From NCBI RefSeq assembly GCF_016595465.1, contig NZ_JAENIK010000012.1, positions 496,001 through 560,000 on the forward strand: a stretch of 64,000 nt of DNA. The letters run 5' to 3'. A program made the translations under genes and the position numbers. Of this stretch, positions 12,849-39,170 are shown piece by piece. This stretch comes from Luteolibacter yonseiensis. Lineage in GTDB: Bacteria > Verrucomicrobiota > Verrucomicrobiia > Verrucomicrobiales > Akkermansiaceae. The notes beneath the pieces were generated by a model. That model was not told the DNA's origin. It searched no databases and saw only the letters and a program-made list of their open reading frames with translations. Every line of letters starts with the position of its first letter. Within the stretch, counting starts at the first letter, position 1.

Positions 12849-12861
12849 GTAACGGGCGCAG
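12849..12861 (-). promoter_or_regulatory. Late motif copy A (scaffold-capsid unit)
   Basis: A perfect CTGCGCCCGTTAC on the coding strand, 33 nt upstream of the scaffold ATG and just after the stop of the upstream gene. It presumably drives scaffold plus capsid up to the terminator at 10113-10147. Confidence 0.65.
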
Positions 12862-12873
12862 ACTTTTGTGTCG

Positions 12874-13320
12874 TTACGGCAGGCGCAACCAGGTGGCAAC
12901 CGTTCCGGTCACCTGCACATACTGCCACTCGTAGGTGGTGTTCACCGCGGCCGCTGTGAGGGCAGCACCTGCAGTAACGCCGCTGCCATCCACGTTCACG
13001 GTGAGAGCCGTGATGATCTGTGAAGTGATCAGCCTGCGCTTTTGGCCAATGCGGGCGTTTGCGGCACTGGGAAGGGTGAACGTGAGGGCGGCCAGGGTGC
13101 CGGCGGGTGTGAGATAGATCGTCTCTTCCGAGACCATGGGCCTCGCGGAGATGATCGTGCCGGTGAGCGGAGACGCGAGGGTGACAACAGGCTCGACCGC
13201 AAGGTTGAAGAGCACGCCGAGGCGATCGCGGAACACGAGGAATCCGAGGTAGGTGCCGAGAATGACACGGTTGGCACGGACAGGGGGGAACTTGGAGGAA
13301 ATGAGGAATTCGCGGAACAT
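12874..13320 (-). CDS. Small beta-rich virion protein (possible decoration or fibre-like)
   Basis: A 148-residue protein with mostly beta-type sequence. Residues about 70-148 (ETIYLTPAGTLAALTFTLPS... to TWLRL) resemble the small beta domain found in phage fibre or head-decoration proteins. It lies between the lysis genes and the scaffold and has its own motif copy 52 nt upstream; an in-frame TAG in that leader rules out a longer start. Function unproven. Confidence 0.6.
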   Translation of the reverse strand: MFREFLISSKFPPVRANRVILGTYLGFLVFRDRLGVLFNLAVEPVVTLASPLTGTIISARPMVSEETIYLTPAGTLAALTFTLPSAANARIGQKRRLITSQIITALTVNVDGSGVTAGAALTAAAVNTTYEWQYVQVTGTVATWLRLP

Positions 13321-13372
13321 GGCGGATGCGGGGTTGGAGTTGTCAGGACACTACTGATCGTTGCCCGGTTCG

Positions 13373-13385
13373 GTAACGGGCGCAT
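13373..13385 (-). promoter_or_regulatory. Late motif copy B
   Basis: ATGCGCCCGTTAC on the coding strand (first base differs from consensus), 52 nt upstream of the ATG at 13320 and 7 nt after the stop of the upstream gene. The longer spacing than in other copies is noted. Confidence 0.55.
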
Positions 13386-13392
13386 GGGGCGC

Positions 13393-13755
13393 TCAGCGCG
13401 ATTCGAGGCGATCAAGGCGGCGGCTCACGCCTTCCAACTGCCTGTCCGTGTCCTTATGCTTGGCCTCCGATTCTGCGGATGAGCGGTCGAAGTCGCGCCT
13501 GAGATCGCGGGAATCTTTGGCGACTTCCGCGAGTGTCTTCAGGGCTTCGGTCTGAACGGCCTGCGTTCTCTCGATGTTCGCCGCCTGTCCGGCGACAGCG
13601 CTGACTTGCTGGTCCACCTGCGCCATTTTCTCCGGGACATTGAGCAGTGGTCCTCCCACCTTGATGGCCGTAAAAATGCCCCCTGCGGTGGCAAACAGGA
13701 TCAGCAGGGTGTTGAGGTTCATTCCTTTTTCTTCGAGCTTCTGGCGGGCGGTCAT
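13393..13755 (-). CDS. Membrane-anchored coiled-coil protein near lysis genes
   Basis: A 120-residue protein with one N-terminal membrane segment (about residues 14-34, TLLILFATAGGIFTAIK) followed by a long charged coiled coil with heptad character to the C-terminus. ATG 13755 gives 120 residues; an internal ATG at 13722 would start directly at the membrane segment and is also possible. Its place right after the endolysin suggests a lysis accessory such as an antiholin or second holin, but one-membrane coiled-coil proteins also occur in other roles. Confidence 0.6.
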   Translation of the reverse strand: MTARQKLEEKGMNLNTLLILFATAGGIFTAIKVGGPLLNVPEKMAQVDQQVSAVAGQAANIERTQAVQTEALKTLAEVAKDSRDLRRDFDRSSAESEAKHKDTDRQLEGVSRRLDRLESR

Positions 13756-13776
13756 GGGTGATAGATGGGGAGAGGA

Positions 13777-14424
13777 TTATAGCGATTTTTCGATGAGCAG
13801 GGCTTCCGCCTCGCGGCGGCGGATGAGGCCCGGGAGCCCTTTGTTCTGCCATAGGCGCTTCATGGAACGGATCTCGCCTGGTATGAACCGGATGCGGCTT
13901 GCGCTGACATGATCGCGGATGGTCCGCATTTCGGTTCGACTTGGGCCGCTCATGCTCGCACCGCGGTTGAAGACGATTGAGAGCAGAGATCCCTGAACGT
14001 GAGGATGGCTCGATGTTACGCCGGGAAATGCACTAGCTGTCATCGTGCCGAAGCGGGGCATCGTGTTGGTGATGAAAAGTGATTCTGCAGCGGACCAGGG
14101 GACGATGATCCACTTCAAGGCGGCGGCGCGGGGTTTGGCGGCGGCGCCCTTGATCCCGGCGGCGGAAGCCAGCGCGTTGCGGCTTCCTTCCGGAAGCGCT
14201 TTCCAGTCGGAAAGCACGGCCGCTCGGCTGTTGTAGCCGATGTCGTAGCCGATCCCCACCGTCACTCCGGAAGCGCCCCCAGGCCACGTAGGCCGTTGGA
14301 GGCGGGCGTCGTAGTATGATTTGCCGCCTGTTTCAAAGTCGACGACCAGAGCCTTCGACTCCGGTGAGATGCTCAAGGGGCCGGCGGGGATGGTCGCCGC
14401 AAGGAAGGTGAGGATCAATTTCAT
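13777..14424 (-). CDS. Endolysin, pesticin/T4-lysozyme-like
   Basis: A 215-residue muramidase candidate that cleaves peptidoglycan at the end of infection. The ATG at 14424 is chosen because it forms an ATGA overlap with the holin candidate and opens with a hydrophobic export or release signal (residues 2-18). The catalytic region follows at once: Glu31 in DFETGG, Asp39 in SYYDARL and Thr55 in SGVTVGIGYD, the E-D-T arrangement of T4 lysozyme and pesticin. The hydrophobic N-terminus may be a signal-arrest-release type or a cleaved signal; I cannot tell which. Confidence 0.75.
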   Translation of the reverse strand: MKLILTFLAATIPAGPLSISPESKALVVDFETGGKSYYDARLQRPTWPGGASGVTVGIGYDIGYNSRAAVLSDWKALPEGSRNALASAAGIKGAAAKPRAAALKWIIVPWSAAESLFITNTMPRFGTMTASAFPGVTSSHPHVQGSLLSIVFNRGASMSGPSRTEMRTIRDHVSASRIRFIPGEIRSMKRLWQNKGLPGLIRRREAEALLIEKSL

Positions 14425-14777: not shown

Positions 14778-14801
14778 GGGTGTGTGGGCTTGTGTTTGGC
14801 T

Positions 14802-15365: not shown

Positions 15366-15367
15366 TC

Positions 15368-16921
15368 TCAGTTTGGTTCGACATTCACGAAGATGGCCCG
15401 GGTGATAGCATCGTTCGCAGCTACGCCTTGCAGCTTGATCTGATGAGCCAGTGTGTTGTTCATACCGGTGGCTGCCGAGAGCGATCCGGTCACGATTCCG
15501 GCCGAATCTCGGAATTCGAAATCGAAATTCCAGTTATTGCTGGAAGATTTCCATATGTTCGCGACGAGTCGCCAAGTGCCGCCGTTGGTGGTGCGAGTTC
15601 CGCTGGTGAAGATGTCGCCGCCGATCCAGTTGTATTTCACAACCTTGTTGTTTCCGTTCGCTGCGAAGCTTCCGTAGATCTCCACTTTGTAGCGATCTCC
15701 GTTTTCGTTGATGACGTAGGGAGGTGAATTCCAAGAACCGCAGTTTGTGTCCCCGCTCCCCGCCGCATTACCGAGGTTGGGCTGGGAACTGGCGGCGTTG
15801 AGCCGACCGGAGGCTCGCATGATGCCGGCTCCTCCAGCAGCCCGGTTGAGGACAGTTTGCAGAGAGTCCGCCCGGACGTTGCCGGTGGACACGATCACAT
15901 CGCCCTTTTGAATGGTCCCACCGCGGTAGAAATTCAGTCCGCCGTCGGAGATGCTCTTCAGAAATCCGCTTGCGGGCATGGTCCGCTGGTCGCCCACATC
16001 TCCGGCGTGGCGACGGTCATTGGCCCAGATTTTGAGCATCCGCATGTCATCGTTGATTCCCCCTTCGTAGGATTCCCAGTATACCCACGTTCCGTTGACG
16101 GCGCCTATGCGGGCGTCAGTCACCGAGAGGATGGATGTTCCGTCACAGGTGAGCACCAGATTGTCTCCGGATATCTGCACCTCATAGATCGCTGTGGGAC
16201 CGTCCATCGCACGGTAGAATGGCGCTGTGGAGTAGTTGGTTCCTACCGTCGACGCGATCTCCACAAGACCGCCCGCGCCACCACTGGTCGCGACTTCCAC
16301 GTAACAGGCGAGACGGCTGATGCGGATGTGTATGAGGGAATTCAGCCACGCGCTGTCCGGTTTGATGATGAACGTGAGCTGCGTGAATAACTGGGGGCCA
16401 GTGGTCACCGGAGGGGTGAACCATTCCACCTCCGCACCCATGTTGAAACAAGGCTCGGAGAGCATGTTTCCGCCGAAGTAGTAAACTTCGCGGCTTTTCC
16501 CGACCAACTTATTGTTGAGGATCCGGACAGAGTTGCTGGAGGAATTGCCATAGCGGATGTCGTAGGTCTGACCTGTGGGAGGATTGGTTATGGTTCCGAA
16601 CGCGGTATCCGTCCGATGAAAGTCGTCCCACAGATCCGCGCGGCTTCCGGGTGACCGTGGGACCGGGGTTAAGCCGATGGCACTGGCGAGATCTTCCGAG
16701 GCGAGCAATTCTTCGAACGTGAAGGCTCTTCCATCTTCGGATACGATCCGGTGGGTAAAACGTGATACCGTGGCGGCCAGCGCCTCTTCGAGGTTTGCGT
16801 TTTTCGGACGCCAGAGCTTTGCCACCTCCGATAGCGGCTGCCTAGATTGCTCGGGGTTGTTCCGTCCGGCAGCGGTCGCGTGCGGCTCGGGGAACTTGTG
16901 GTAATCTTGCGGACTGGCCAT
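15368..16921 (-). CDS. Tail/receptor-binding protein with shared N-terminal module
   Basis: A 517-residue beta-rich virion protein. Residues 1-80 contain a module also present at the start of the protein at 20551-21537: DYHKFPEPHA, then KLWRPKNANLEEALAATVSR and a FTFEELLAS segment. The remainder has lectin-like beta stretches with many Gly, Asn and aromatic residues (for example TWVYWESYEGG), suggesting a surface-exposed binding domain. The shared N-terminus probably docks both proteins to the same virion structure. A motif copy lies 31 nt upstream of the ATG, inside the 3' end of the portal gene. Confidence 0.65.
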   Translation of the reverse strand: MASPQDYHKFPEPHATAAGRNNPEQSRQPLSEVAKLWRPKNANLEEALAATVSRFTHRIVSEDGRAFTFEELLASEDLASAIGLTPVPRSPGSRADLWDDFHRTDTAFGTITNPPTGQTYDIRYGNSSSNSVRILNNKLVGKSREVYYFGGNMLSEPCFNMGAEVEWFTPPVTTGPQLFTQLTFIIKPDSAWLNSLIHIRISRLACYVEVATSGGAGGLVEIASTVGTNYSTAPFYRAMDGPTAIYEVQISGDNLVLTCDGTSILSVTDARIGAVNGTWVYWESYEGGINDDMRMLKIWANDRRHAGDVGDQRTMPASGFLKSISDGGLNFYRGGTIQKGDVIVSTGNVRADSLQTVLNRAAGGAGIMRASGRLNAASSQPNLGNAAGSGDTNCGSWNSPPYVINENGDRYKVEIYGSFAANGNNKVVKYNWIGGDIFTSGTRTTNGGTWRLVANIWKSSSNNWNFDFEFRDSAGIVTGSLSAATGMNNTLAHQIKLQGVAANDAITRAIFVNVEPN

Positions 16922-16939
16922 GTCCGCAGACTGCCATGG

Positions 16940-19000
16940 TCAGGTGGCTTCGGTAACGGGCGCAGAATCCACATTGTCAAGCCCGGTAGCCGGGGCCATG
17001 ACACCAGCATCCGTAAGCGCCTGCGCCACGATGGGCGCGATCTCTGGAGGAAGCAGCGCGATGATGCCAGCGGGGTCCGCTATTGCTTGCCGGATGATGT
17101 CCTCTGCGTTGTTGTAACCGAGGGCGGTGATCTGGTCGATGAAGAGCGGACGCGCAGCCGCTTTTTCCATTTCGGGAAGCGCGATGTAACTGGCCAATGC
17201 CTGAGTGGCTGCCTGGGCGTTCGCGAGCTTCGACTGGTTCTGTGCCTGCACCAGTCGGAGGGAGACGTTCATCCGGAGTCCGCGGACATCGCCCGCCTTA
17301 ATGGTGAGCAGTTCGCTAGCCTCGCCGTCACCCCATGCGAACGTCTCGTCGCGATCCTGGTTGGCGTATACCAGATCGACGTTGAAACCCGCCACCCGTT
17401 CGATGTCGTCAGTGAGCTGTGTGATGGGGTCTTTCAGCAGGAGAGCGCCACGGGATGTGAGTTGGTTGACGCCGGTGGCCGTCGACGCGTTTGGAACCCC
17501 TTTCAGCTCCCCTTGGGCGGCTGAGGTGATACCGCTCCGCATCTGGGCCATCTGGAGCTGGGTGTTCATCAATTCGACCGCGCGGGAATTGGAATCCGGA
17601 ATGGTGGCGAACTGCACGAAGTCCTCAATTTTTTTATCCACTCCGAGGACCACGGGCTTGGAGGTGTCGAGCACGTAGTTTTTCGGCTCGGGATCAAGCA
17701 GTGCTGCGGGCTGCACGGCCGCAATCACTTCGGAGGCAAGCTTGTTCCTACGGGTGATCGAGTTGTGCTGGCGGTCCACGGAGTCGTTCGACATCTCGTA
17801 TTTCTCGAAATAACCCCGTCCAAGGATGCGTCCGGGGATCTTCGCCACGCGGACTGGGAACACCGGCAGCACGCCGTCGGGCGTTACATTTTTCAAGTAG
17901 TCCGCGCGGAAGAGGATCTGAAGTTCCGGAGCGAACACACAATGGATACGAACAGGTTTGCCCGTGCCGAGAGGATCCAACCGCATATATCCATCGATCA
18001 ATGAGATGGGTGGATTCGCCGAATCCTCGTCAATGCTGGCGGTGTCGGTGTTCGATTCGCCGCGCTCTGATCGGATTCCTTCGCCGTTCGTGGCACATGC
18101 GGCTTTGAGTTGGTTGAGGCGATCCGTCGGAATCTTGTAAAGGTCCATCACATCGAGCAATCCCATCCGGAACCTGCAGAAAACGTTCGTGAAGGCGAGA
18201 TCCAGGTGGGGTGCCGCGCTGTCGAATGCTATGTCCTTGAAGTCGATGCAGTTCGTCCGGGTGTTGTCGTAGTGCACCGTGGTCTCCTCGACGAGAGTTC
18301 GCCTCCACTCGAGATCGTTTCCGTCAAGCTTTGCCGCGGCGGCTTCCTCCTCGGACTTGATGAAGTCTTTCGTTTGAGGGTTTGTGAACGGAGCGTTCTT
18401 GGACTTGGAAATGGCGACGGTGACCAGTCTCTTGCTCGTTTCGACCTGCCGGTCCCACCGTGTCTTTACGAAAACCGTGCCGCCCCAGCACGCGATGGAG
18501 ATCGCGTCTCTCAGAGCGGGTTCGAGGTCGCTTTGATCAAGTTTCCATGTCGCGTGCTTGGTGATAAGGTCGGCAAGCGTTCCATCAGCCCGCCCGATCG
18601 GCCCGGCTTTGAGCCATGGCCAGGTTCCGAAGATATCGTCACGCCCCTGAGCGGTTGCGAAATCTACGAATCCTTCGCTCATCCCGATGGATTCATTCTG
18701 GACCGAGAACACGTCTTTCACGGACTCCGTGTTGTTCGGGTCTGGTCGCCCGACACGGTCGGAATAGTCCCCCTCCGACATGTGTTCCCACTTCGTCATC
18801 TTGCCCCTCCACGTGCTGAGGCTGCCGTAGCAGGAACTCCATTGATCGCACGCCTGCTGGAGCAGCCAATCTACCTGGCTGTCACTCAGTTCCATCATCA
18901 GCGCCGTATTCTTCGGACTGACATTTCGGGACGCTGGTGCGTCATCAACGAGGCGTGTGGTTTTTGCTGTCCGCTCGTCGAGGATGTGATGGGAACTCAT
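16940..19000 (-). CDS. Portal protein
   Basis: A 686-residue protein of portal type: long helical and alpha/beta body, a YCYGSLSTWRGK-like helical N-terminal part, the TRWDRQVETSKRLV stretch near the wing region, and a helical Gln/Ala-rich crown at the C-terminus. It forms the DNA entry ring of the capsid. I prefer the ATG at 19000 to that at 19012: it places the upstream motif copy at 32 nt, as in other units, while 19012 would place it at 20 nt. It lies upstream of scaffold and capsid, separated by the receptor-binding and lysis genes. Recognition is by length, order and general pattern. Confidence 0.7.
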   Translation of the reverse strand: MSSHHILDERTAKTTRLVDDAPASRNVSPKNTALMMELSDSQVDWLLQQACDQWSSCYGSLSTWRGKMTKWEHMSEGDYSDRVGRPDPNNTESVKDVFSVQNESIGMSEGFVDFATAQGRDDIFGTWPWLKAGPIGRADGTLADLITKHATWKLDQSDLEPALRDAISIACWGGTVFVKTRWDRQVETSKRLVTVAISKSKNAPFTNPQTKDFIKSEEEAAAAKLDGNDLEWRRTLVEETTVHYDNTRTNCIDFKDIAFDSAAPHLDLAFTNVFCRFRMGLLDVMDLYKIPTDRLNQLKAACATNGEGIRSERGESNTDTASIDEDSANPPISLIDGYMRLDPLGTGKPVRIHCVFAPELQILFRADYLKNVTPDGVLPVFPVRVAKIPGRILGRGYFEKYEMSNDSVDRQHNSITRRNKLASEVIAAVQPAALLDPEPKNYVLDTSKPVVLGVDKKIEDFVQFATIPDSNSRAVELMNTQLQMAQMRSGITSAAQGELKGVPNASTATGVNQLTSRGALLLKDPITQLTDDIERVAGFNVDLVYANQDRDETFAWGDGEASELLTIKAGDVRGLRMNVSLRLVQAQNQSKLANAQAATQALASYIALPEMEKAAARPLFIDQITALGYNNAEDIIRQAIADPAGIIALLPPEIAPIVAQALTDAGVMAPATGLDNVDSAPVTEAT
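16953..16965 (-). promoter_or_regulatory. Late motif copy C
   Basis: A perfect CTGCGCCCGTTAC on the coding strand, lying inside the last codons of the portal gene and 31 nt before the ATG of the receptor-binding protein at 16921. Its presence inside coding sequence at the standard spacing argues that the site is selected. Confidence 0.65.
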
Positions 19001-19032
19001 TTCGCGGATCATCCCGCAAATGAACCTCGCTC

Positions 19033-19045
19033 GTAACGGGCGCAG
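19033..19045 (-). promoter_or_regulatory. Late motif copy D
   Basis: A perfect CTGCGCCCGTTAC, 3 nt after the stop of the gene at 19049 and 32 nt before the preferred portal start at 19000. Confidence 0.65.
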
Positions 19046-19048
19046 CCG

Positions 19049-19345: not shown

Positions 19346-20187
19346 GGCAGGGTGAGGCCGGTGCAGGTTTCCCAAAGGATTTTGATGGCGGCGGTGAACG
19401 AGTCGGCCTGGGCTTGGGTGAAGCCTGCGCCGAGGCCAAAGGCTCCGAAGCGCGCGGAGGAGTGCGTGATTGCCGCACTGTTGTTATTGTTCCGCGCGAG
19501 GAAGTAGACGTTGATGTTGTCGAGCGCCGTCGAGTCGAGAGCCGTGGAGGTTTGCAGGACGGACCATCCGGCAGTGGTGCGAACCGCCAGGTATCTCGAC
19601 GTCGACGACGTGGTTGCAGTGAAGAGAATACCGAGACGGGAATCCACGGCGTTGAGCTGGGATGCCACGTCCCCGATGGCGGCGACAAGGTCGAGGTTCG
19701 CGGCTTGCCCGAGCGAGAATCGCGCGGTCGACGCGCCGACGAGGCCGGACAAGGACGCCTGGGCCCGCGGATCGGCCAGTGGGTTGAGAACCCACATGGA
19801 GCCTGAACTCGTGGTCACGCCGAGCGCGCCCGGGGTCGATCCGACGTTGAAATACTGGGTGGTGCCGTTTCCCTGCACGTAGCCGGCTGCCTGGGTGGGG
19901 CTGTTGACCCATGTCCCGGTTGTTCCGGTGACGAGATCAATGGCATTCGCGGAGGCGTTGGCCCAAATCGGGAGATAGATCCGTTTGTGGATGCTCCATC
20001 GTCCCGCTGCCTTTTCAGTCCGGAAGAAGTTGTTGATGGCGGTCCGCTGCACCGATGTCACGGGTGAACCCTTCGTGGCCTCGATCTGCGCAATTCGCGC
20101 GGCCGCGTCCGAGTCAAATGATGCCCCGCTCACGGATGGACCTGATGTCGAGGCCGTGAGCGACGCGCGGATCGATGGTGAAATCAT
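19342..20187 (-). CDS. Virion protein, LamG-like/tail surface type, unknown function
   Basis: A 281-residue Ser/Thr/Ala-rich beta protein. The start at 20187 gives an ATGA overlap with the upstream gene; the longer frame to 20442 is antisense-like shadow. The middle (GYVQGNGTTQYFNVGSTPGAL through RYLAVRTTAGWSVL) resembles tail surface proteins with a lectin-like sandwich; the C-terminus is a short amphipathic helix with a Cys. It is encoded between two small genes in a unit opened by motif E. A role in the tail or capsid surface is inference. Confidence 0.55.
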   Translation of the reverse strand: MISPSIRASLTASTSGPSVSGASFDSDAAARIAQIEATKGSPVTSVQRTAINNFFRTEKAAGRWSIHKRIYLPIWANASANAIDLVTGTTGTWVNSPTQAAGYVQGNGTTQYFNVGSTPGALGVTTSSGSMWVLNPLADPRAQASLSGLVGASTARFSLGQAANLDLVAAIGDVASQLNAVDSRLGILFTATTSSTSRYLAVRTTAGWSVLQTSTALDSTALDNINVYFLARNNNNSAAITHSSARFGAFGLGAGFTQAQADSFTAAIKILWETCTGLTLP

Positions 20188-20501: not shown

Positions 20502-20532
20502 GCCCTGAATGTGCCAGAGAACTCGCCAGGGG

Positions 20533-20545
20533 ATAACGGGCGCAG
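20533..20545 (-). promoter_or_regulatory. Late motif copy E
   Basis: CTGCGCCCGTTAT on the coding strand (last base differs), 31 nt before the ATG at 20501 and 5 nt after the stop of the gene at 20551. Confidence 0.6.
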
Positions 20546-21537: not shown

Positions 21538-21568
21538 TGCCGGAGGATGTCACCTGAGAACATCGCGC

Positions 21569-21581
21569 GTAACGGGCGCAG
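21569..21581 (-). promoter_or_regulatory. Late motif copy F
   Basis: A perfect CTGCGCCCGTTAC, 31 nt before the ATG at 21537, in the intergenic space shared with the divergent cargo genes that start at 21621. Confidence 0.65.
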
Positions 21582-30200: not shown

Positions 30201-33200
30201 CCGCTTCCGGGCCGGGGTGAGCCGGCTGTCGCGGTCCACGGCGTCCCGGATCGCCTCGCCGGTAACACGCATCGGGGAGAATTGGTCAGAGGCCGTCTCA
30301 GGCAAGATTTCCGCTACTTGGGTGTCAGATTGACCGGTTTGGACATCCAACTTTGCTTCAGATTGACGGTTTGCGTCTGTGGGGGCGTCCGAAGTGCTGT
30401 ATTCCGCGAGGATTGATTCGATCCCGTCGATCGCGTCCTTCACGCGCTGGGACAGCTCGTCACCGGCGACGACGCTCTTCAGGAACTCGACGGCACGCCT
30501 GAGCATTTCCACAAGTCGGGCTGGCATGTCCTTCGAGAATGCCTTGGTCAACTCGGTGACCTGTCCATCGGCTCGCTGTTGCACGAGCATACGGACTGTC
30601 TCTGCCGCCTTCGCCCACGATTCCTTGTTCTCGAACGATGCCTGGTAGGTGTGGGCGGCTGCGGTCTGCTGTTCCGGGGTGAATTCGTCCCACAACTGGC
30701 CGTAGAATTCCTGCACGTCTTCACCGATGTTTCGGACGGCTTCGAACTGGGCGAGGTGAATGATTTCCTCGTCAATGATGGCATCAACGCGTGAATCCTG
30801 ATTGTCGGGCGAGAAACCGGAAAGTTCCCTCTCCAAATCGCCGCTGTTGATGACAATCGCACCGGAAGGGGTGGCGTAGGCACCGCCGGTCTGTCCGGTG
30901 GGCCCGGACTCGTCGAGTAAGAACAGGCCGCGCAGGCTGGGGTAGCGTGCGCTGGCCCGCTGGACAGCCGCTGCCGCCTTTTGGACGGTTTCTGATGGCT
31001 GGGTCGGCTCCTCTTGGGCGGTGGGGCTCTCATCGCCGGGAACTACTTTTTCTTGCGAAATTATTCCGGAATTATTCTGAGGCTCTGGAACCGGCGGAGT
31101 CAGCAGGTGGCCGCGCCGGGTATATCCCTCGGGCATTTCGATGCCGGCTGCTTTGGCCATTGAGACCGAAACGGGGCGGCGAGCTGTCAAGGATTGCTTG
31201 ACGACTGACGGGATGTCCGGAAGCGAGGGATCGGTCTGGCGCGCGGCTTCGTATTCGGCGGCGTCCAGCTCGGCAAAGTTCACCTGGCTTTGCGCCGGTG
31301 CTTCTTGGGATGGTCGAAGCGGAGCATTCCCGTCGACATCAAAGCCTGCGTTTCCTTCAGCGTCCGGGCCTGTTTCCATGCCTTCCGGCGTTGGCGCAGG
31401 GATCGAATTGCTTTCAAGGTTTTCGGACGCTTGCGGGTTCGACTCATAGGATGGTTGGGTTGTGGGTTGGGAAAGGGCGTCGTAAATCGCATCGCTCTCG
31501 GTGGTCCTGACCAGGTTGCCGACCGCGGGCATATCGACTCGCAGGAATGCTCGTGCATCGTCCGTGAGCACGGTGGCGACCATGCCGTCAGACTGTGGGA
31601 TCTCCGCGAACAGAGGCTTCCCGTCGGGAGTGGTGCCGCCTTGGATCGCTGACCGTTCGGCGGACGTGAGAGCTGCCTCGTTCCCGGTGGCAACCTTCGC
31701 GATGCCCTGGAAGTAGGTTCGCTGTTCCGGATCCTCAATGCCGTAGATCTCGTTTACGGCCGCGATACCTTCTTGGGTCTGCGTGGCCAGGTCGGTGACG
31801 GAGCGGTCGAGCATCTGCCGGGCTTGTCCCTTCACGGTTTCGAGGTCTTCCGGCGTGATCCCGTCTATTCCTTCGCCGGTGAACGCTTCGAGTTTCTGGC
31901 GGTTTTCCTCGATGGCCGCGGCGGTCTGTTCAAAGCGGGCTGGATCCACGAATGCCCGAGCGAGCATGGCCTGTTCGGGAGAGATGGCCTTGAAGCCGGG
32001 CAGGTCCGCCATGGATGCGTTGTAGTCGCGGGTCCACTTGGCGTTCAGAGCGTCACGGCGGGCGGTTTGGGCCCGTTCGGGGATTCCCGCCACCGCTTGG
32101 CCTCCGAAGTGCGCGATTGGGACCAACGCAACTGCGCCGATCGTGCCGGAGGCGAACGCTCCTGGTAAATTCGGTGAGTCCGCGCCGATCTCCGATAGAA
32201 CCTCTTCGAATCCTTCGCCCACTGCGGAACCGGCTGCAGTTTTGCCGAAACCTACGACACCGTTCATGGCTCGCTCGGTGCGGGTGAGGGGATTCACAAG
32301 AGATTCGGCCTTGATGCCAGCCCTTGCCACGTCGTCGAGCAACGCTCCCGCACGTTCGCCGATTCTCGCGATCATGCTCGCTTTGGATGCCATGCCGACG
32401 CCTTTCAGCCCGGCTTGAACCGCCTTCGAGCCGCCTGCGGTGACGAGCATGCCGGCGTCGGCAACCATCTCCGTGGCCACCTCTTGCCATCCCGCGTGCA
32501 TGCCTCCGATGACCGAGCCGCCAAACTTGCCCATCCCAGCGGTTTTCTTCTCCATCTCCGCGCTGAACTGGCGGCGCCCGTTGCTCATGAGCAGACGTTC
32601 CTTGAAAAGCTCCATTTCTCGCGGGTCGGCGGTCTGAGCATACCGGACCAAGGCAGAGGCAAGGGCGGGATCCTTGTTGGCGTCGAGAGAATCAGCGGTG
32701 ATCGGCCAGGACGGGTCGGGGGAGAGGCCGTGGAGAGCGAGCGCGGCTTGGATCACCGCCTGATTCGCCGCATCTACCTTGCCTTGGTCCGGAGCGGGCT
32801 TCTCGAACTCTTCGTCGATCGTGCGCTTGAAGTTCCGGACGGCATTGTTGAGCTGACCGCTGATCTGCGCTCCTTCCTTGGTGGTCCAGATCTTGGCATT
32901 CCGCTTCGCGCCTTCGACCCAGTTGGCTGTGTCGCGGTTGGTGGAAGTCAGCAGTTCGTTGAACACCCGCTTGCCGTCCTCAGAGCCGAACAGCGAGGCC
33001 TCAGCCGCCCCCAGTCCGACTGCGAACTTGCCCGCCAGTCCGATCATGGATCCCGCCACGTCGTCACGTATCATGCGTCCACCGGTCTTCAGTGCGGACT
33101 GGATGCGCTCGCCGGTCGTGGCCTCATCCGCGACATCCTTCCCGTAGAGCTTCTGAATTGACGCCCGGGTGACACCTGGCTTGCCGCGGTTCTCGGAAAA

Positions 33201-35186
33201 CCAGTCGCGTAGGTATTCCCGCTTCACCTCCTGCCGGTCGGCGAGGTTGGTCCGGTTCGACCAACGGGATTGCACGGTTTCTGCGGCCGGTTTGCCCCGT
33301 AGGGCGATGCTGGCGTCGTTTTCCGCCTTGGACCTGTCTTGCAGCCATTTCCCGAAAGACTGGGGCGTGGAGAGCGGGGTGGGTTTCAGCGTGTCGCTGT
33401 AAAGTTCCTGCATGAGGGCTTCACCGCTTTGGATGGAAAGCTCCCCGGCGTTCACCTTGGCCTTGATGGAGGCCTTGTCCGCACCCAGTTGGGCAATGCG
33501 AGCGGACATTTGTCTTGGACTGGTCACCGTCGGGTCCAGTCGCGTCTGGAATACGCTTGCGAGGTATTGCGCCTCCTTGGCGATGTCCTTCTTTTGACCG
33601 TCGTCGCGGAGATACACCGGTGCGCCGCTGGTGACACCGAGGGCGACGGTCTTGTTGATCTCGTCGTCGGTGCGGGCGTCATCACGGAGCACGATGACCT
33701 TCTGGCCGTCCGCGCCGCCGTCCTGTATGGTGCCGATCCATTTCCCGCCCCGATTGATGAAGCTGCCGGCGGCGGATGGCTCCAGCGTCATGCCTTCCAC
33801 GCCCTGCAAGCCGGAGAATGCCTTGAGCACTGCGTCAGGGTTCCGCGTGTCCGGAGCGATGACTGGTTTCGGCTGGGCAGTTTCTGTTCGGTTTTCGGGA
33901 GAGTCTTCCACCGATGGGACAGCGCCTGCATTTGCCCCCGCAGTAGCAGGGATTCCGTTTGTCCCGGATGTGGAAGAAATGTCGGGAGGCAGGACAGCGG
34001 AGAGGTTCTCCTGGTCGGGATCCACGGTGTCCGGTTCGCTTCTGGCCAGCAGTTCGGTGGCCTCCGGGCCGATCCCGGGCAGTTCGTGGGCGATCTGTTC
34101 CGCGCGGAGCTTCAGATGCTCGAGCTTCGTGTTTTCCTCCGCTCGGTTGAGGGATTCCGCATAGGGGGAGAGCTTGTCGTGGGCGGTCTTGGCGGCCGCG
34201 TATCTATTTGCCAGGTCGCGCTGGTCCTGCTGCCACTTCGCAAGCTCGTAAGAATCATAGGGAATCGGCTGCTTGTAACGATCTCGGGCCGCGAAACCTG
34301 TGTCCGGATCATACTTTTCCATCGCCCCGGTATTCGGATTGAGGACGAATTTCGGAGAGGTTGTGGACTTTTCCAGTTCCCGCGTGACGTCGTCGAACTC
34401 GCCCTTGGCCTTCTTCCACGGTTCATCGAAGCGCATCCGCTGCTGGGCGATGCCGTTCGCTTTGAGAGCGAGCTGGTCCCTCCGCTGCTGGAACTCCGCA
34501 TCCCGCATGGCCTTGGCCTCGGCCACCGGATCCACGCCGGTCGCGGTCTGCTGCGGCCTGCCGAACTCGTCATCGGTGGTGACGCGGGTTTCGCCCGTCT
34601 TCGCATCGGTCTTGGATGGCAGGGGAGCGGTGAGAAGAGATCCGCGGTCATTCCGGTAGGTCTGAGCTGCCTGGGTGGCAACTGCGGTTTGATCACCAGC
34701 AGGGCGGTTGAGCTGTGCAATGCCCCCGACACCCGGGACGGTGGAGACTTGCTCGGCGGGAGTCGGCTGGATGGTGGGAGTTCCAACCTTCCCGGTATCG
34801 TAGACCGGCGCACCGTCGTTGTGACGTGCGATCGTGCGTTCACCCGTGGCGATATCCGTAACGTTTTTTTGACCGGCTGCGGCACCAGCGCGAACGTCCA
34901 TCGCACGCGCCTGCTTGTCCGTGGATGCCTGCTCATTCGCAGCTCGGCGTGCCTCCGCCTCGCTCCTGCGCTGCTGCATCTGGCCTTGGCGGATCGCATC
35001 CTCGCGCTGCCGCTCATCCTCCCGCAGCATGGCGTTTCCCACGCGCTGGGCATCAGGGTTGTTCGCACTGCGCGTCAGCGTTTGCGCCTTGGGAATGTCG
35101 ATCGCTGGCCGGTCTGGAGCTACCTGAACCTCGTCGAGGGCTGCTTGAACGTCGGCACGGAAACGGGAGCGTTGCGGAAGGGGCAT
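24291..35186 (-). CDS. Giant polyvalent protein (3631 residues) with zincin-like, PRTase, ParB-like and HTH regions
   Basis: A single 3631-residue ORF, by far the largest gene here. Recognisable parts in order: a Gln/Ala/Arg-rich helical N-terminus (1-400); a hydrophobic Gly/Ala stretch near 1010-1030; a degenerate zincin motif DEEIIHLAQFE near 1470 with Glu in place of the first His; a phosphoribosyltransferase domain with PRPP loop YLLVDDTLTQGGT near 2103-2115; a ParB-like segment ADHHVVDGHHQWM near 2330; helix-turn-helix-like regions near 2455-2500 (MPPIYRDVFASVSAG) and 2725-2775 (LTKREKAVITMIRQG); and a conserved C-terminal region from about 2995 opening with WRASILSGPQTHIVNAGSN. This matches the described polyvalent proteins that phages inject with their DNA. 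Motif G lies 31 nt upstream. Confidence 0.8.
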   Translation of the reverse strand: MPLPQRSRFRADVQAALDEVQVAPDRPAIDIPKAQTLTRSANNPDAQRVGNAMLREDERQREDAIRQGQMQQRRSEAEARRAANEQASTDKQARAMDVRAGAAAGQKNVTDIATGERTIARHNDGAPVYDTGKVGTPTIQPTPAEQVSTVPGVGGIAQLNRPAGDQTAVATQAAQTYRNDRGSLLTAPLPSKTDAKTGETRVTTDDEFGRPQQTATGVDPVAEAKAMRDAEFQQRRDQLALKANGIAQQRMRFDEPWKKAKGEFDDVTRELEKSTTSPKFVLNPNTGAMEKYDPDTGFAARDRYKQPIPYDSYELAKWQQDQRDLANRYAAAKTAHDKLSPYAESLNRAEENTKLEHLKLRAEQIAHELPGIGPEATELLARSEPDTVDPDQENLSAVLPPDISSTSGTNGIPATAGANAGAVPSVEDSPENRTETAQPKPVIAPDTRNPDAVLKAFSGLQGVEGMTLEPSAAGSFINRGGKWIGTIQDGGADGQKVIVLRDDARTDDEINKTVALGVTSGAPVYLRDDGQKKDIAKEAQYLASVFQTRLDPTVTSPRQMSARIAQLGADKASIKAKVNAGELSIQSGEALMQELYSDTLKPTPLSTPQSFGKWLQDRSKAENDASIALRGKPAAETVQSRWSNRTNLADRQEVKREYLRDWFSENRGKPGVTRASIQKLYGKDVADEATTGERIQSALKTGGRMIRDDVAGSMIGLAGKFAVGLGAAEASLFGSEDGKRVFNELLTSTNRDTANWVEGAKRNAKIWTTKEGAQISGQLNNAVRNFKRTIDEEFEKPAPDQGKVDAANQAVIQAALALHGLSPDPSWPITADSLDANKDPALASALVRYAQTADPREMELFKERLLMSNGRRQFSAEMEKKTAGMGKFGGSVIGGMHAGWQEVATEMVADAGMLVTAGGSKAVQAGLKGVGMASKASMIARIGERAGALLDDVARAGIKAESLVNPLTRTERAMNGVVGFGKTAAGSAVGEGFEEVLSEIGADSPNLPGAFASGTIGAVALVPIAHFGGQAVAGIPERAQTARRDALNAKWTRDYNASMADLPGFKAISPEQAMLARAFVDPARFEQTAAAIEENRQKLEAFTGEGIDGITPEDLETVKGQARQMLDRSVTDLATQTQEGIAAVNEIYGIEDPEQRTYFQGIAKVATGNEAALTSAERSAIQGGTTPDGKPLFAEIPQSDGMVATVLTDDARAFLRVDMPAVGNLVRTTESDAIYDALSQPTTQPSYESNPQASENLESNSIPAPTPEGMETGPDAEGNAGFDVDGNAPLRPSQEAPAQSQVNFAELDAAEYEAARQTDPSLPDIPSVVKQSLTARRPVSVSMAKAAGIEMPEGYTRRGHLLTPPVPEPQNNSGIISQEKVVPGDESPTAQEEPTQPSETVQKAAAAVQRASARYPSLRGLFLLDESGPTGQTGGAYATPSGAIVINSGDLERELSGFSPDNQDSRVDAIIDEEIIHLAQFEAVRNIGEDVQEFYGQLWDEFTPEQQTAAAHTYQASFENKESWAKAAETVRMLVQQRADGQVTELTKAFSKDMPARLVEMLRRAVEFLKSVVAGDELSQRVKDAIDGIESILAEYSTSDAPTDANRQSEAKLDVQTGQSDTQVAEILPETASDQFSPMRVTGEAIRDAVDRDSRLTPARKRDLDFAMDEIWDLLETLPPEQRREFTDNAINEWLDSLPPAKEKKARSIDSPARREAYKILNSDSYPALSKIFQSGTKLAPRPNLISLVLAKRKSGGKLSNREIELVQNNPEYDGALFQNQFANSGKGKVAREILSLITARQGEGSRPDVVAGYVRDGMTASDMWGELWKELNAIANGTQLDGEDPNRDFSDEDIAAELAKPTVSSLEKVQREAFDHANTPDNGEPFAVEDFTPEHVGSTVTVDGEEMRITAVEMDSLGIEVESVILDDHLRFGRQILDGGDVIYLENPDAPAYSAEVDEEALFSSPSAPRGRAAPVDIPNAIVAHDLGKAAKHPDYAAAKAGDPRAALRLARDLVTKQMRNDVAVLIGDSKPVIVPVIAMEAGGNNKIPHGVAIRIEESLGLQSTTDIIQSVKAHRSEKTALDRVFAQPSFSGPVKAGESYLLVDDTLTQGGTFAALADHIARNGGKVVGAVALTGKQYSATLRLSEPLLAQLRNRLGDLEDTFKRATGHGFESLTESEARTLVKFGPVDRVRERITKEGIERGDGVDAIDEGQADSPLAASPSNQRTFDFEPAKNNQSTVAGAKVDSEWSLYNPRSGTLGVPRAEMPQVKADNRSALVQYLRARGVDYEAEEVLPGTLKPTQAEYSPSKVRRAREFDGGNRSILVSADHHVVDGHHQWMVKLADAPKEPMPVIRLKAPIAELLPMIKEMPSSTTAAGAPSSKMDTRNADSKELFPDDGGFQLTGEKTVDGEKVTAAKRAAEAAKASQDAAQGTLFSSPSPDQSAAVQAALAAMPPIYRDVFASVSAGDTPAQVFSKFNLNEIKVKNILNSVRSKITAAMGAASAEGLVPVMKDGKFDGGRPDLALSTNKTVAAIDQIRNESDIPDVEAWDEINDRAEKQLSDDYQGTYNALFKKASDVDQMSTVEIAAAKKIIARETLAGNIRSSADRVKIALLIHGYRDIGTEAARRLAIRRDPSMSPAERHAQYIAEALFTPDAETRKRLREAKKGQQEDILSGWMARVDAIKAELLSEGIDIDASLAAFKASQDAAKQSSADSPRATAAIEDEFRKLTKREKAVITMIRQGARMSAVMDSTQMSKSDILQIRNQFDSDIRKAMAARAKRYMANSLAASPSDMMDSILADLGWQTLEDFDDTVPGYVPPELRKPQRPRKPAPTPAPKRPDLTPEQQTALDEAFERFKEADPSTWSTFWQTEAKNLTPMIGQVAFEEFKGEAMKPWRDRWQTEMEGVATPAARISFDDWISKPSNAEKINRQEMLFPEPINEQKGDWNETRPFSGQGELMRESVNETTGTFNMNDPRAVKAVLDAYAIARGSKMDALMEYWRASILSGPQTHIVNAGSNLLNAAFNLIPKRAAEAAINSLLGTVGQGNARSATFAEFVPMARNLRAGFQLAARMALNSWNLQERTFEAYANAKPLQFEFTGVGSEHIPPALKGPLGKIMHSISFRPMTAVDEFMKSLYAQMEAAAQAHRIAAVEEKLTGDAYEKRLNELMVPGSAAWIRAIDEAKRITFQQEIDGTNPRSIARLDQLAELAKKGRNMPWIGRPLTFFLPFIDTPLNVFKQAVEMSPIGGTLAVIDGIRALRRRVFRGNLSPQEAKAEADRIYDRARFVQDLTNQTMGVIVILALQGLVEGDEDELPVITGTAPYKSTKRGERDNAYAVLPPQTIRIGDLQFSYARVEPFATFLASTVDLLVEMNRHGGFKPEVMSQWLGRFKDQVKDKTFLQGISDLINAVEDPDRFAERLTANIATGFVPNLIRQPIREADSQIRDNNPRADDGFMTAVSKRVGFSIAPQSAPEKMDVWGNDISSNRGVLIGGIRPTDMLFRILDPTNATFGSKPDPIDVWIYRWNQQAANSEDRIAIQPISDAVSGTVPGEKKSRQFALTVEEQHAANRTAGKAARAILGDGWETMPLEPLQAERINHVVRHAQQSERTRIRNEKIITVLKHGPGH

Positions 35187-35217
35187 GAACGCATCCTGTC
35201 ACGCACTCTGAGGAGGC

Positions 35218-35230
35218 GTAACGGGCGCAG
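35218..35230 (-). promoter_or_regulatory. Late motif copy G (polyvalent protein)
   Basis: A perfect CTGCGCCCGTTAC, 2 nt after the stop of the gene at 35233 and 31 nt before the ATG of the giant gene. It gives that gene its own transcript although it sits in a co-oriented series. Confidence 0.65.
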
Positions 35231-35232
35231 GT

Positions 35233-35806: not shown

Positions 35807-35883
35807 ATGACGTGAGGAGAGCGGAGCGGTCGATAAACCTGCTCGCATTTCGAACACCCGGAATCGCCTTGGCAAGCCGTCTT

Positions 35884-37674
35884 TTACCACTTCCCGGTCA
35901 CATTCCGCCAGGTGTGGCGGTCGGGCGGGTCCACGTGCTTGGCCACCATCATCTTGAACTCATGGGCGCTCGGCAGGGTTTCCCACGCGATCGCATCGGC
36001 AATGACATCATCGTCGTGCGCACCGGGTGCGGCCTCGGCGCGGCCCTTGTGGTTCACGATGAACATTTTGTATTCCGCGAGTGCGTGAAGGTCGAGAACC
36101 TCGACATCCCCATTGCGGATGGCCGATGCGAAACCTTCGATCAGAGCGTTCCGCTCCTCCTTGTCGCCCATCTTGAATCCGTATTGCTCCACCACCTGCC
36201 CGATGCGAGGGGAGAACGGACGGCGCTTGTAGATCGGAATGCCGGCCGTTTGGAGGAGGCGGAGGATGTCCATGCCCTTGTTCACCTCGAGGCTGACCAT
36301 GGCGAGGCCATACCACTTGCTCAGCCGTGCCACGTGACCGGCGACATCTTCACCGAGGCCTCGGAAGGGCGGGCGTAGGCGGGCAACCTTTTTCGCGGGC
36401 CGCCACCGGTCATGCAACTGATCGTGGTAGGCGGCTCGCCACACGGATACGGAGTTGGCATCGGGATCCATGCCGATCGTCTGCGTGATGTCCTCCGCCG
36501 GGTCGCAGGTGACGATGTAGCGCAGGCCGGTCTTCGGCGGCTCCCACACGTAGATATCTCCGCTCCCGTCCCGCACCGGCTGGAATGAAACCTTGGTGTT
36601 GTCCTGGGTGACGAGATAGCCGGTATCGAAGGTCGCACCGCGGGCGATGTTCTCCATCTCGGTGATGCGTCCAAGGTCGAAGCGAGGCGTTCCACCGGCG
36701 AGCCAGCAGGATACCTCGTCCTCGGGGTAGTAGAAATCGAAGATCTTCTCGTCGCCGTTACAGACGCTCTTGATAATTTCCCGGCGCCACGCGACCTGCT
36801 CCCAGTCCCAGCCGTATTTCTCGATGCCGTTCCTCTCGCGCTCGGTCAGAGTCCGGCGGATCTGGTCGATCTCCGCTTCCTGAACCGGGTTGGCGCGGCG
36901 GTTGTCGGCGAATTCGAACCATGCGGCGAACACCTTCACCCACACCTCTTCGGGGCAGATGCCTGCCTCGTGCATGGCAATGAACTGGTCAAGCGTCACA
37001 GCCTCCTGCCAGGTGGTGTATTGCCATCCCGCTGCGCGTTCCGGTGTGGATTCCGCGATCGCCACTGTCTCCGATCCGGAAAGGGAGGGGAGAACCGCGG
37101 CCATTGTCTTCTTGTCGTTCCTGGTGGCTGTCTGCGGCCATTTGGACACCTCGGAGAAGAAACCGCATTGGCGAGTGCCACCGACGCCGGCGTCAGGGTT
37201 CTCAGCGGAATCCACGGTCCACTTGGTCCCGTTATCCCAAGCAATGCTCTGGTTTGGATCCTTGATCACCGCGTGGCCCCACGGGAATGAATCTACCCGC
37301 GAGTATGCCTTGATCTTGTCGAGCATCTCGGTGGAGTGCTCTTTCACGTCGGAAATTGCGATTCCTTCGATCGGCCTTCGCATCCCGTGGTGGTAGACGA
37401 TGTGCGTTCCAAACGTGGAACATCCGGCCCGACGAGGTTTCGTGGCGATGATCCGGATCTTCACCTTCATGGCCCACATCGTCTCGTAGGCTTCTGACAT
37501 GCGGAGCTGGAGGACGTTGGGGACCGGGATGATGACCTCGTTATTCTTGTCCCGGATGGTGACAAAGCAGGCAAAGTGGACGGCGGGAGAGGTGAGAGCC
37601 ATCAATTGCAGCTCGTCCGCTGTCTTGCCCCTCAGGCTCTCGGCAAATCGTTCACTGATCGAATCGGCTTCCAT
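35884..37674 (-). CDS. terL: Terminase large subunit
   Basis: A 596-residue DNA-packaging ATPase/nuclease. The ATPase part shows a terminase-type Walker A (ATKPRRAGCST, residues 77-87) and Walker B-like strand GFFSEVSKW (about 168-177). The RNase H-like nuclease part shows VTCDPAEDI with the first catalytic Asp (about residue 390), a middle acidic segment VSLEVNKGMDI and the final DDDVIADAIAWE near 555. It packages the genome through the portal into the prohead. Motif H lies 35 nt upstream. A plus-strand gene separates it from the small subunit. Confidence 0.9.
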   Translation of the reverse strand: MEADSISERFAESLRGKTADELQLMALTSPAVHFACFVTIRDKNNEVIIPVPNVLQLRMSEAYETMWAMKVKIRIIATKPRRAGCSTFGTHIVYHHGMRRPIEGIAISDVKEHSTEMLDKIKAYSRVDSFPWGHAVIKDPNQSIAWDNGTKWTVDSAENPDAGVGGTRQCGFFSEVSKWPQTATRNDKKTMAAVLPSLSGSETVAIAESTPERAAGWQYTTWQEAVTLDQFIAMHEAGICPEEVWVKVFAAWFEFADNRRANPVQEAEIDQIRRTLTERERNGIEKYGWDWEQVAWRREIIKSVCNGDEKIFDFYYPEDEVSCWLAGGTPRFDLGRITEMENIARGATFDTGYLVTQDNTKVSFQPVRDGSGDIYVWEPPKTGLRYIVTCDPAEDITQTIGMDPDANSVSVWRAAYHDQLHDRWRPAKKVARLRPPFRGLGEDVAGHVARLSKWYGLAMVSLEVNKGMDILRLLQTAGIPIYKRRPFSPRIGQVVEQYGFKMGDKEERNALIEGFASAIRNGDVEVLDLHALAEYKMFIVNHKGRAEAAPGAHDDDVIADAIAWETLPSAHEFKMMVAKHVDPPDRHTWRNVTGKW

Positions 37675-37709
37675 TCAGGCTGGAGCATGCCTGAGAGAAG
37701 TCCGGTGGC

Positions 37710-37722
37710 GTAACGGGCGCAA
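37710..37722 (-). promoter_or_regulatory. Late motif copy H (terL)
   Basis: TTGCGCCCGTTAC on the coding strand (first base differs), 35 nt before the terL ATG, in the 91-bp space shared with a divergent cargo gene. Confidence 0.6.
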
Positions 37723-37765
37723 AGATCATGCTTGTTCTGACCGTCAATTCGACCAGTTTCGAAGA

Positions 37766-38467
37766 ATGGACTGTGGCGAAGTGTTCTTTAAAATCGTTGA
37801 AATCGGGATCAATATCCTGACCTTAGGAGCGGCGGGATGGGCGGCATGGGCCGCAGCAGGTGCGTTCCGGAAGCAGTCTGACCAGACTCAGATCGCCGAA
37901 AAACAGTATGAGCATTTCACCCGAGAGCTTGAGAGGTCAAATCGTGCCAAAACCCCCTTGTTCGCGTCATATGGCGAGGGCGAATTTCCTCATGGGATCA
38001 GCTTTAATCGTGTTCAGGCGATAGACGTCATTGGTGTTGGCCGGAGAAACCTCACATTGGCAGAACATTTCGACGGCGAAGATCCGCGGATGGTATACTT
38101 GCCTCTCAGAAATATCAGGGATTCTGTCACGATTTTAAATCTGACCGCCATGGATCCTACAACGGGCAAGGCGGCCAAGATTCCGTTTGAGATTTTTGCA
38201 GAGGCGAGTGGAACGCACCCAGGCTTTTCGAATCTCTATATGCTCGGCTACCCGATGAATTCGAGAATGCGGCTGGAAAGGCCAGCGTTGGATGTGCGGA
38301 TCATTTTCGAAACAGGCGACGGGATCGTAGAATATCACGATTATGTCACGATGCCAGGCACGCGAATCTTTGAGCGTTCGAATCCGCCAGGATTCAACTT
38401 TCTGGTGGAAGATATGAAACGCCCAACTTGTAACAACACACAGAATGCCGAGTCCGTTTCCTTGTAG
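37766..38467 (+). CDS. Membrane-anchored cargo protein between terminase genes
   Basis: A 233-residue protein transcribed against the late genes. I use ATG 37766, directly before the single membrane segment (about residues 12-35, VEIGINILTLGAAGWAAWAAAG), followed by a coiled-coil linker (QIAEKQYEHFTRELERS) and a C-terminal beta domain. Upstream in-frame sequence is antisense to terL. No family recognised. Its position and opposite strand are those of a moron or defence gene expressed in the lysogen. Confidence 0.65.
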   Translation: MDCGEVFFKIVEIGINILTLGAAGWAAWAAAGAFRKQSDQTQIAEKQYEHFTRELERSNRAKTPLFASYGEGEFPHGISFNRVQAIDVIGVGRRNLTLAEHFDGEDPRMVYLPLRNIRDSVTILNLTAMDPTTGKAAKIPFEIFAEASGTHPGFSNLYMLGYPMNSRMRLERPALDVRIIFETGDGIVEYHDYVTMPGTRIFERSNPPGFNFLVEDMKRPTCNNTQNAESVSL

Positions 38468-38550
38468 GTATCAGGAAAATGGGGCAGGGGAGGTGATGTG
38501 CCAAAAATCGCACAATCGCACTACCACATCTTGTGGGTGAACAGTGCCTT

Positions 38551-38658
38551 TCAGTTGCTCGGGTAGACGAGCCTGGCGAGAAGTCGCAAGACGACAATGG
38601 TCAGTATCGTGCCCACGATCCAAAGCGCTGGCTCAGGGATGGAGATGGAGACGTTCAT
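38551..38658 (-). CDS. 35-residue membrane microprotein after terS
   Basis: A short ORF: MNVSISIPEPALWIVG followed by a hydrophobic segment (TILTIVVLRLLARLVY) and stop. Its ATG overlaps the terminase small-subunit stop as ATGA (38655-38658), the coupling used throughout this phage, which supports translation. One membrane span, basic at the C-terminal side. The proline-glutamate-proline before the span recalls PEP-type sorting tails but the rest is too short to claim that. Confidence 0.5.
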   Translation of the reverse strand: MNVSISIPEPALWIVGTILTIVVLRLLARLVYPSN

Positions 38659-39092
38659 TTCTGCCTCCTCCGATCCAGCGCGGACACCACTTCCTTTGCC
38701 CTGGCTTCGAGCGCATCCAGCGTCTTCGGCCCGGTCTCCACGACCACTTGGTCCGGCTCGAAGTCTCCGGCCAGCTTCGCATCCACCTCGATGGCGCGGA
38801 TCCTCGCGAGCAGTCCGGACTTCGGATCTTCGGCAATTCCAGCCAGGATCTGACGCTTCCGATCCTTCGTCATGAGTGCCGCGGCGGTCTGCGGGGCGCG
38901 GAGTTCTGCCACTCTTGCCCTGATTGCAGCGTTTTCCAGCAGCCTTGGCCCGTTGGTTCCGGCACTCTTCACGGTCACCTTGTAGCCCGCTTGGATGTAT
39001 GCTTCGGTTGCGCTGAGGCCTGAGACCACCAGTTCCGCGAATCGCTCTTGCCTGACGTTCAGAGGCTTCCGCCCATCTTGTAACGGTTTCAT
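38655..39092 (-). CDS. terS: Terminase small subunit
   Basis: A 145-residue DNA-recognition subunit of the packaging motor. It carries the Terminase_2 pattern: LNVRQERFAELVVSGLSATE, then AYIQAGYKVTVKSAG and PRLLENAAIRARVAEL, an N-terminal helix-turn-helix that binds the pac or cos site, followed by a coiled-coil oligomerisation region and basic tail. Large subunit is downstream at 35884-37674. A diverged motif copy lies 65 nt upstream. Confidence 0.85.
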   Translation of the reverse strand: MKPLQDGRKPLNVRQERFAELVVSGLSATEAYIQAGYKVTVKSAGTNGPRLLENAAIRARVAELRAPQTAAALMTKDRKRQILAGIAEDPKSGLLARIRAIEVDAKLAGDFEPDQVVVETGPKTLDALEARAKEVVSALDRRRQK

Positions 39093-39157
39093 AAGGATCG
39101 GGACGCGTTGTTCACGGCGTCGTCTGAAATCAGGGTAAGCAGAAGCGTCGAGCTTTT

Positions 39158-39170
39158 TATACGGGCGCAG
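39158..39170 (-). promoter_or_regulatory. Late motif copy I, diverged (terS)
   Basis: CTGCGCCCGTATA on the coding strand: the 10-base core CTGCGCCCGT is intact, while the TTAC end is replaced by a TATAAAAA run. It lies 65 nt before the terS ATG. The different end could reflect mixed host-type promoter character or chance. Confidence 0.45.

What the first reader, a model, noticed from the sequence alone, without database searches (positions are those of the whole stretch)
12849..39170. A 13-bp motif (CTGCGCCCGTTAC) precedes nine late genes at a set distance
Read on the coding strand, copies lie at 12849, 13373, 16953, 19033, 20533, 21569, 35218, 37710 and 39158 (plus-strand left ends). Five are identical, three differ at one end base, one keeps a 10-base core. 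Four lie 31 nt from the ATG, with others at 32, 33 and 35; two are farther (52, 65). One lies within the portal coding sequence and still keeps its spacing. They are absent from the early genes. The pattern divides the late genes into units and suggests a phage-specific late promoter or activator site, possibly a new transcription switch.
Basis: partly seen in the sequence, partly recalled or inferred. Interest (0 to 1): 0.9.

Follow-up and report, generated by a model that had tools for sequence, protein, structure and literature searches.

The report
Phage promoters that likely make leaderless mRNAs
A temperate phage in a Verrucomicrobiales bacterium, and a family of related phages, put the same two-part switch in front of blocks of virion genes, placed so that RNA should begin almost exactly at the start codon; this looks like a phage-specific promoter set giving messengers without a leader, though no RNA has been measured.

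Summary
The host genome has 11 copies of the core GCGCCCGTTA; nine lie in this prophage. The start codon usually follows 5-8 nt later, so the predicted RNA start is at or near the ATG: leaderless mRNA. Sites with distant start codons keep the -10, which argues for transcription, not translation. The architecture recurs before orthologous genes in a prophage 43-55% identical in protein, and in 8 of 11 new loci fetched by terminase alone. The first box drifts between phages while the -10 stays, suggesting a phage-specific recognition factor. Best reading: a phage promoter class in which an upstream box replaces the -35 element and recruits host RNA polymerase. The factor is not identified; a conserved CxC...CxH protein encoded near the terminase genes is a weak candidate.

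The parts
12849..12861 (-). upstream box, exact; -10 TACGGT at 12824-12829; gene 11769-12815
   Evidence: orthologous G108 site has the same 33-nt gap
13373..13385 (-). upstream box, 1 mismatch; -10 TAGTGT at 13348-13353; start codon 52 nt away (gene 12874-13320)
16953..16965 (-). upstream box, exact, inside the portal ORF; -10 CAGTCT at 16928-16933; gene 15368-16921
19033..19045 (-). upstream box, exact; -10-like GATGAT at 19008-19013; portal start 32 nt away
   Evidence: G108 portal site has a 33-nt gap
20533..20545 (-). upstream box, 1 mismatch; -10 CACATT at 20508-20513; gene 20184-20501
21569..21581 (-). upstream box, exact; -10 CATCCT at 21544-21549; gene 20551-21537
35218..35230 (-). 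upstream box, exact; -10 CAGGAT at 35193-35198; giant virion protein gene 24291-35186
   Evidence: G108 site has the same 31-nt gap
37710..37722 (-). upstream box, 1 mismatch; -10 CATGCT at 37684-37689; TerL gene 35884-37674
   Evidence: G108 site has the same 35-nt gap if TTG is the start
39158..39170 (-). upstream box with degenerate end; -10 TACCCT at 39132-39137; TerS gene 38655-39092, start 65 nt away
   Evidence: TerS sites of several relatives have a TAAAAT-like hexamer
40260..40622 (-). 120-aa conserved CxC...CxH protein, weak candidate for the recognition factor
   Evidence: absent from the whole genomes of G108 and G079

Best explanation
Each copy is the upstream half of a two-part phage promoter. 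The 13-bp box (about -44 to -32 if RNA starts at the ATG) stands where the -35 element would be and is bound by a phage-specified factor, probably a DNA-binding activator placed like a class II activator (recalled term). 19-20 nt downstream lies a sigma70-type -10 hexamer (commonest form CATGAT; A and T conserved; often G two bases before it, as in extended -10 elements), read by host RNA polymerase. RNA should start at or within a few bases of the start codon, so most units would give leaderless mRNAs. Shown by sequence: both boxes, their spacing, phage-limited occurrence, conservation at orthologous genes, drift of the upstream box between phages. Inferred: the RNA start, leaderlessness, timing and the factor.
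For: 18 of 18 exact cores in the own and G108 regions are on the coding strand; 16 of 18 have YANNNT starting at position 20 or 21 (background 1.4-1.6% per position; P 2e-22), and 14 of 18 have an ATG opening an ORF of 60 codons or more at positions 30-36 (background 0.5-0.7% per position). 54 full sites in 20 motif-phage sequences against 2 in the same sequences reversed and 2 in 13 other sequences. Orthologous gaps agree: giant 31/31, 11769-12815 gene 33/33, portal 32/33, TerL 35/35 with TTG. De novo 9-mers upstream of ORFs rank this motif (variant in G079) first in own, G108 and G079. Leaderless genes in Deinococcus have a -10 motif about 6-7 bp before the ORF (PMC12340547, passages).
Against: No RNA ends. 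The commonest first base of the hexamer is C, not T (34 of 47). No activator or sigma factor found. The host itself shows only a slight TANNNT excess at -12 (6 of 258 ORFs; 0-4 of 258 at other positions). 11 of 14 genomes with a TerL match and fetched DNA lack it. Own and G108 sites share ancestry, so P overstates independence. The terminator-like scan gave fewer sites than shuffles.
Confidence: 0.62

Rival explanations
1. A phage-encoded (or host alternative) sigma factor reads both boxes itself; the upstream box is its -35 element and CATGAT its -10.
For: Both boxes keep near-fixed spacing, and C at the first -10 position is unusual for a primary sigma factor (inference).
Against: No sigma factor seen by PHROGs in 30 window proteins, nor among the 25 of 51 Pfam families displayed for 105 early ORFs (an HTH_17 and a MarR protein were there). 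The 19-nt gap is long for a -35/-10 pair (recalled). TerS sites pair a degenerate box with a near-consensus TAAAAT hexamer. Only 2 core copies in the host outside the prophage, neither with the -10, so a host sigma is unlikely.
Confidence: 0.2
2. The motif is an RNA element in the 5' leader that promotes or regulates translation of the next gene.
For: Position is set relative to the start codon at most sites.
Against: Sites with start codons 52 and 65 nt away (13373, 39158) and G108 103228 and 119634 still carry a -10-like hexamer at 20-22 nt; box-to-hexamer spacing is tighter than hexamer-to-start.
Confidence: 0.06
3. A phage RNA polymerase inside the giant injected virion protein reads the box.
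For: A giant protein relative is found in most motif phages compared, and most of it is unassigned.
Against: No polymerase domain in three giant proteins (one of them partial) by Pfam or in 30 window proteins by PHROGs; the second box has the A, T and preceding G of a sigma70 -10.
Confidence: 0.05
4. Operator, recombination linker or other DNA site unrelated to transcription initiation.
For: Some gene boundaries in phages carry short shared linkers (recalled).
Against: Coding-strand bias 18 of 18 and the second box; flanks of the copies are otherwise unrelated.
Confidence: 0.04

Closest known systems
Phage T4 middle promoters (MotA box plus sigma70 -10; sigma appropriation)
   Same: A phage box replaces the -35 element upstream of a sigma70 -10, about half with TGn; host polymerase is used (PMC2988021, passages).
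   Different: MotA box (a/t)(a/t)(a/t)TGCTTtA is centred at -30 and 12 +/- 1 bp from an excellent TAtaaT; here another box, 19-20 nt away, centred near -38, with a poorer hexamer; MotA/AsiA homologues were not specifically sought.
Phage P1 Lpa-dependent late promoters
   Same: Late genes need a phage factor that acts on host RNA polymerase (PMC8201110, passages).
   Different: P1 promoter anatomy was not seen in any call, so sequence and spacing were not compared.
Leaderless genes with an ORF-adjacent -10 motif (Deinococcus-Thermus)
   Same: -10 hexamer about 6-7 bp before the ORF, no leader (PMC12340547, passages).
   Different: Cellular genes, described there with a -10 motif; here phage genes with a conserved phage box upstream.
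AR9 / phiKZ late promoters
   Same: Short conserved late promoters spread over a phage genome (PMC5312081, passages).
   Different: AACA-N6-TA/G or TATG read by phage multisubunit polymerases; AR9 5' UTRs are 26-491 nt.

Membership tests
Promoters with a sigma70 -10 and a phage box in place of -35 | sigma70-type -10 at fixed spacing from the box | tested here: met
   16 of 18 unbiased sites
Promoters with a sigma70 -10 and a phage box in place of -35 | phage-encoded binder of the box | tested here: inconclusive
   candidates only
T4 MotA-dependent middle promoters | MotA box sequence, 12 +/- 1 bp from the -10 | tested here: not met
   box CTGCGCCCGTTAC, spacing 18-20
Leaderless gene promoters | -10 about 6-7 bp before the start codon | tested here: met
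   5-8 nt (3, 20, 11 and 13 of 47), within a search range of 4-8
Leaderless gene promoters | RNA 5' end at the start codon | not testable with these tools
   no RNA data
AR9/phiKZ-type late promoters | AACA-N6-TA/G or TATG consensus | tested here: not met
   alignment
Promoters of a phage RNA polymerase | phage-encoded RNA polymerase gene | tested here: inconclusive
   none seen in 30 window proteins by PHROGs, three giant proteins by Pfam, 105 early ORFs by Pfam with 25 of 51 families displayed
P1 Lpa late promoters | Lpa-type activator and its promoter element | not tested
   promoter anatomy not seen in any call

The most novel reading that the evidence does not exclude
An uncharacterised phage family, with named prophage hosts in Verrucomicrobiota, uses a dedicated recognition factor, new in kind, that pairs a -44/-32 box with a C-12 hexamer and sets RNA starts on the AUG, so that the virion genes are expressed as leaderless mRNAs in a host with little Shine-Dalgarno usage; the factor and its box co-evolve phage by phage.
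Probability: 0.3. Interest if true: 0.75.

Novelty: new variant of a known kind. Interest (0 to 1): 0.62.

Why it matters
It gives a readable, phage-specific promoter code for a phage family of a phylum with few studied phages, allows transcription units to be annotated from sequence alone, and predicts leaderless virion mRNAs in a host without a visible Shine-Dalgarno signal. The drift of the box between phages offers a natural experiment for finding the factor that reads it.

Tried and rejected
Chance: rejected (18 of 18 strand bias and second box). Coding repeats or recombination linkers: rejected, since spacing to a second box is near-fixed and flanks are unrelated. Translation element: unlikely (see rivals). 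Missing Shine-Dalgarno as proof of leaderlessness: dropped, because 258 host ORFs from 400 kb show no SD peak. CxC...CxH protein as the obligate factor: weakened; absent from the whole genomes of G108 and G079, which carry the motif or its variant, and not seen in L132, L134 or L137, whose DNA reaches only about 3-5 kb upstream of TerL. A shared small DNA-binding protein between G108/G079 and the others: none found at E 1e-6. Other motifs in the 11 TerL-matched genomes without this one: no convincing one; for G247, G072, G282 and G291 only 18-26 kb was held, and 9 of the 23 genomes with a TerL match were not fetched beyond their small locus. Promoter/terminator scan: no excess over shuffles. 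PDB fold search of the candidate: 107 matches at E 10, none at 0.001. Portal used as probe: nothing in viral or genome contigs by pattern nor in phages or plasmids by tblastn.
Full report
Observation. The core GCGCCCGTTA occurs 11 times in the 5.73-Mb host genome: eight in this window, one just beyond it (window 64616), two elsewhere without the -10. The region is a prophage: TerS, TerL, a 3631-aa virion-type protein, portal and major head protein, with RecT, RecE, helicase, methyltransferase and DnaB genes upstream and an integrase ORF at window 65527-66576.

Host. A terminase relative on a 51,942-base contig is from Haloferula sp. BvORR071; G079:C15 has the same length and match, and G079 is in the window genome's family. 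NCBI places Haloferula in Verrucomicrobiales. The window's own genus was not named. One other relative is in a MAG called Verrucomicrobia, one in a MAG called Hyphomonadaceae.

Second box. Aligned on the motif end, 20 own and G108 sites show conserved positions 18 (G), 20 (C/T), 21 (A) and 25 (T). On the 18 exact-core sites, chosen without regard to this, YANNNT starts at position 20 in 12 and at 21 in 4; every other offset from 5 to 44 has at most 1 (P 2e-22). An ATG opening an ORF of 60 codons or more lies at positions 30-36 in 14 of 18. Orthologous sites share ancestry, so P overstates independence, but the TerL and portal proteins are only 55% and 43-44% identical. Counting seven nt from the end of the -10 to the RNA start (recalled rule) puts the start at position 32, the A of the ATG at the 31-nt sites. 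In Deinococcus a -10 motif about 6-7 bp before the ORF gives leaderless mRNA (PMC12340547, passages).

Why transcription. Sites with distant start codons (13373, 39158; G108 103228, 119634) keep a -10-like hexamer at 20-22 nt. TerS promoters of several phages carry TAAAAT-like hexamers with a degenerate box and a more distant start codon. A few sites follow directly on a hairpin with a T run; T runs are seen at 16 of 49 sites against 10% of background segments, while mean folding energy hardly differs (-16.8 against -15.3 kcal/mol).

Relatives. The G108 prophage has nine of its genome's 11 core copies, and gaps match at orthologous genes: giant 31/31, gene 11769-12815 33/33, portal 32/33, TerL 35/35 if G108 uses TTG. 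A scan of viral contigs for the two-box pattern gave 39 stretches; of 11 records chosen by eye, nine encode TerL relatives, with boxes before TerL, the giant gene, portal and others. These are biased by selection, and some are near-copies of each other (V419/V421, V420/V427, V422/V426). Not selected by motif: of 11 new loci fetched by terminase (L132-L137, L139, L140, L142; L143, L144), eight carry the architecture (L132-L137, L143, L144); L139 and L140 do not, and L142, a 26% terminase hit, showed none in the scan. Of 14 genomes with a TerL match whose DNA was fetched, own, G108 and G079 carry it; 11 do not, apart from one stray hit each in G026 and G247 with GTG or TTG starts. Over 20 motif-phage sequences (566,605 bases) there are 54 hits (47 distinct), 2 after reversal, 2 in 13 other sequences (490,005 bases); 104 permuted cores average 2.3, the maximum (43) being the shifted motif itself.

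Drift. The box differs between phages: TCCGCCCGTT in L135, L136 and L144; CGTTTC or CGTATC ends in L134; CCCGCCCGT in L133; CGTAT in L137 (one site); TGCGCCCGTG in five full sites of G079:C15. Numbers per phage are small. G079 is mixed: contig C16, which may hold the rest of the same prophage because a giant-protein match runs to its end, has two canonical copies. The -10 and start geometry stay. The pattern fits a trans factor that changes with its phage and argues against a host regulator.

Factor. Not found. No sigma factor or polymerase was recognised in what was scanned. The 120-aa CxC...CxH protein (40260-40622) is 54-64% identical to five relatives and was found in eight phages counted once each (own, V419/V421, V422, V423, V425, V427, L133, L143), but in none of 11 other whole genomes tested, which include the motif-bearing G108 and G079, and not in the shorter upstream DNA of L132, L134 and L137. 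Its model (mean pLDDT 83.8) has no PDB match at E 0.001. The 'SWIM-like' label used in my notes is recalled and comes from no call.

Known systems. T4 middle promoters are nearest in logic but differ in box, spacing and hexamer quality (PMC2988021, passages). P1 late genes need a phage factor, Lpa, acting on host polymerase (PMC8201110, passages). A text search for CGCCCGTTAC found 7 papers; the titles and abstracts of the six listed concern other matters. Listings for Verrucomicrobia with prophage (15 of 344 seen), Verrucomicrobi with phage and leaderless (5 of 5) and leaderless with phage and late promoter (4 of 4) showed no such promoter by title or abstract start. Akkermansia is reported SD-scarce (PMC10783764, passages), in line.

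Noticed in passing
24291-35186; L123:5200-16296: Giant protein after TerL (3631 and 3698 aa, longer in some relatives) with a conserved phrog_22413 region; the L123 one also has an InPase (PF18823) domain and a DarB-like antirestriction match.
   Followed up: partly
alignment A4 (105 early ORFs of six phages): One ORF matches the Acb2/Tad1 hairpin domain (1.1e-6) and one the Lar restriction-alleviation family (3e-8); which ORFs was not resolved.
   Followed up: no
L118-L120 (IMG/VR 3300048583_000219): The giant gene is split over the two contig ends with a slight overlap in matched residues, so this 59.6-kb contig may be a complete circular phage genome.
   Followed up: no
L116, L119, L121 upstream of TerS: The stretch between the TerS -10 and the TerS start codon shows similar bases in several relatives (for example cgacgacgcgaacagc), a possible leader element.
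   Followed up: no
52870-53604: Sulfotransferase-like gene in the early region (Pfam E 7e-10).
   Followed up: no
L147-L166 (host, 400 kb): 258 host ORFs show no Shine-Dalgarno peak upstream of the first ATG of the ORF.
   Followed up: partly
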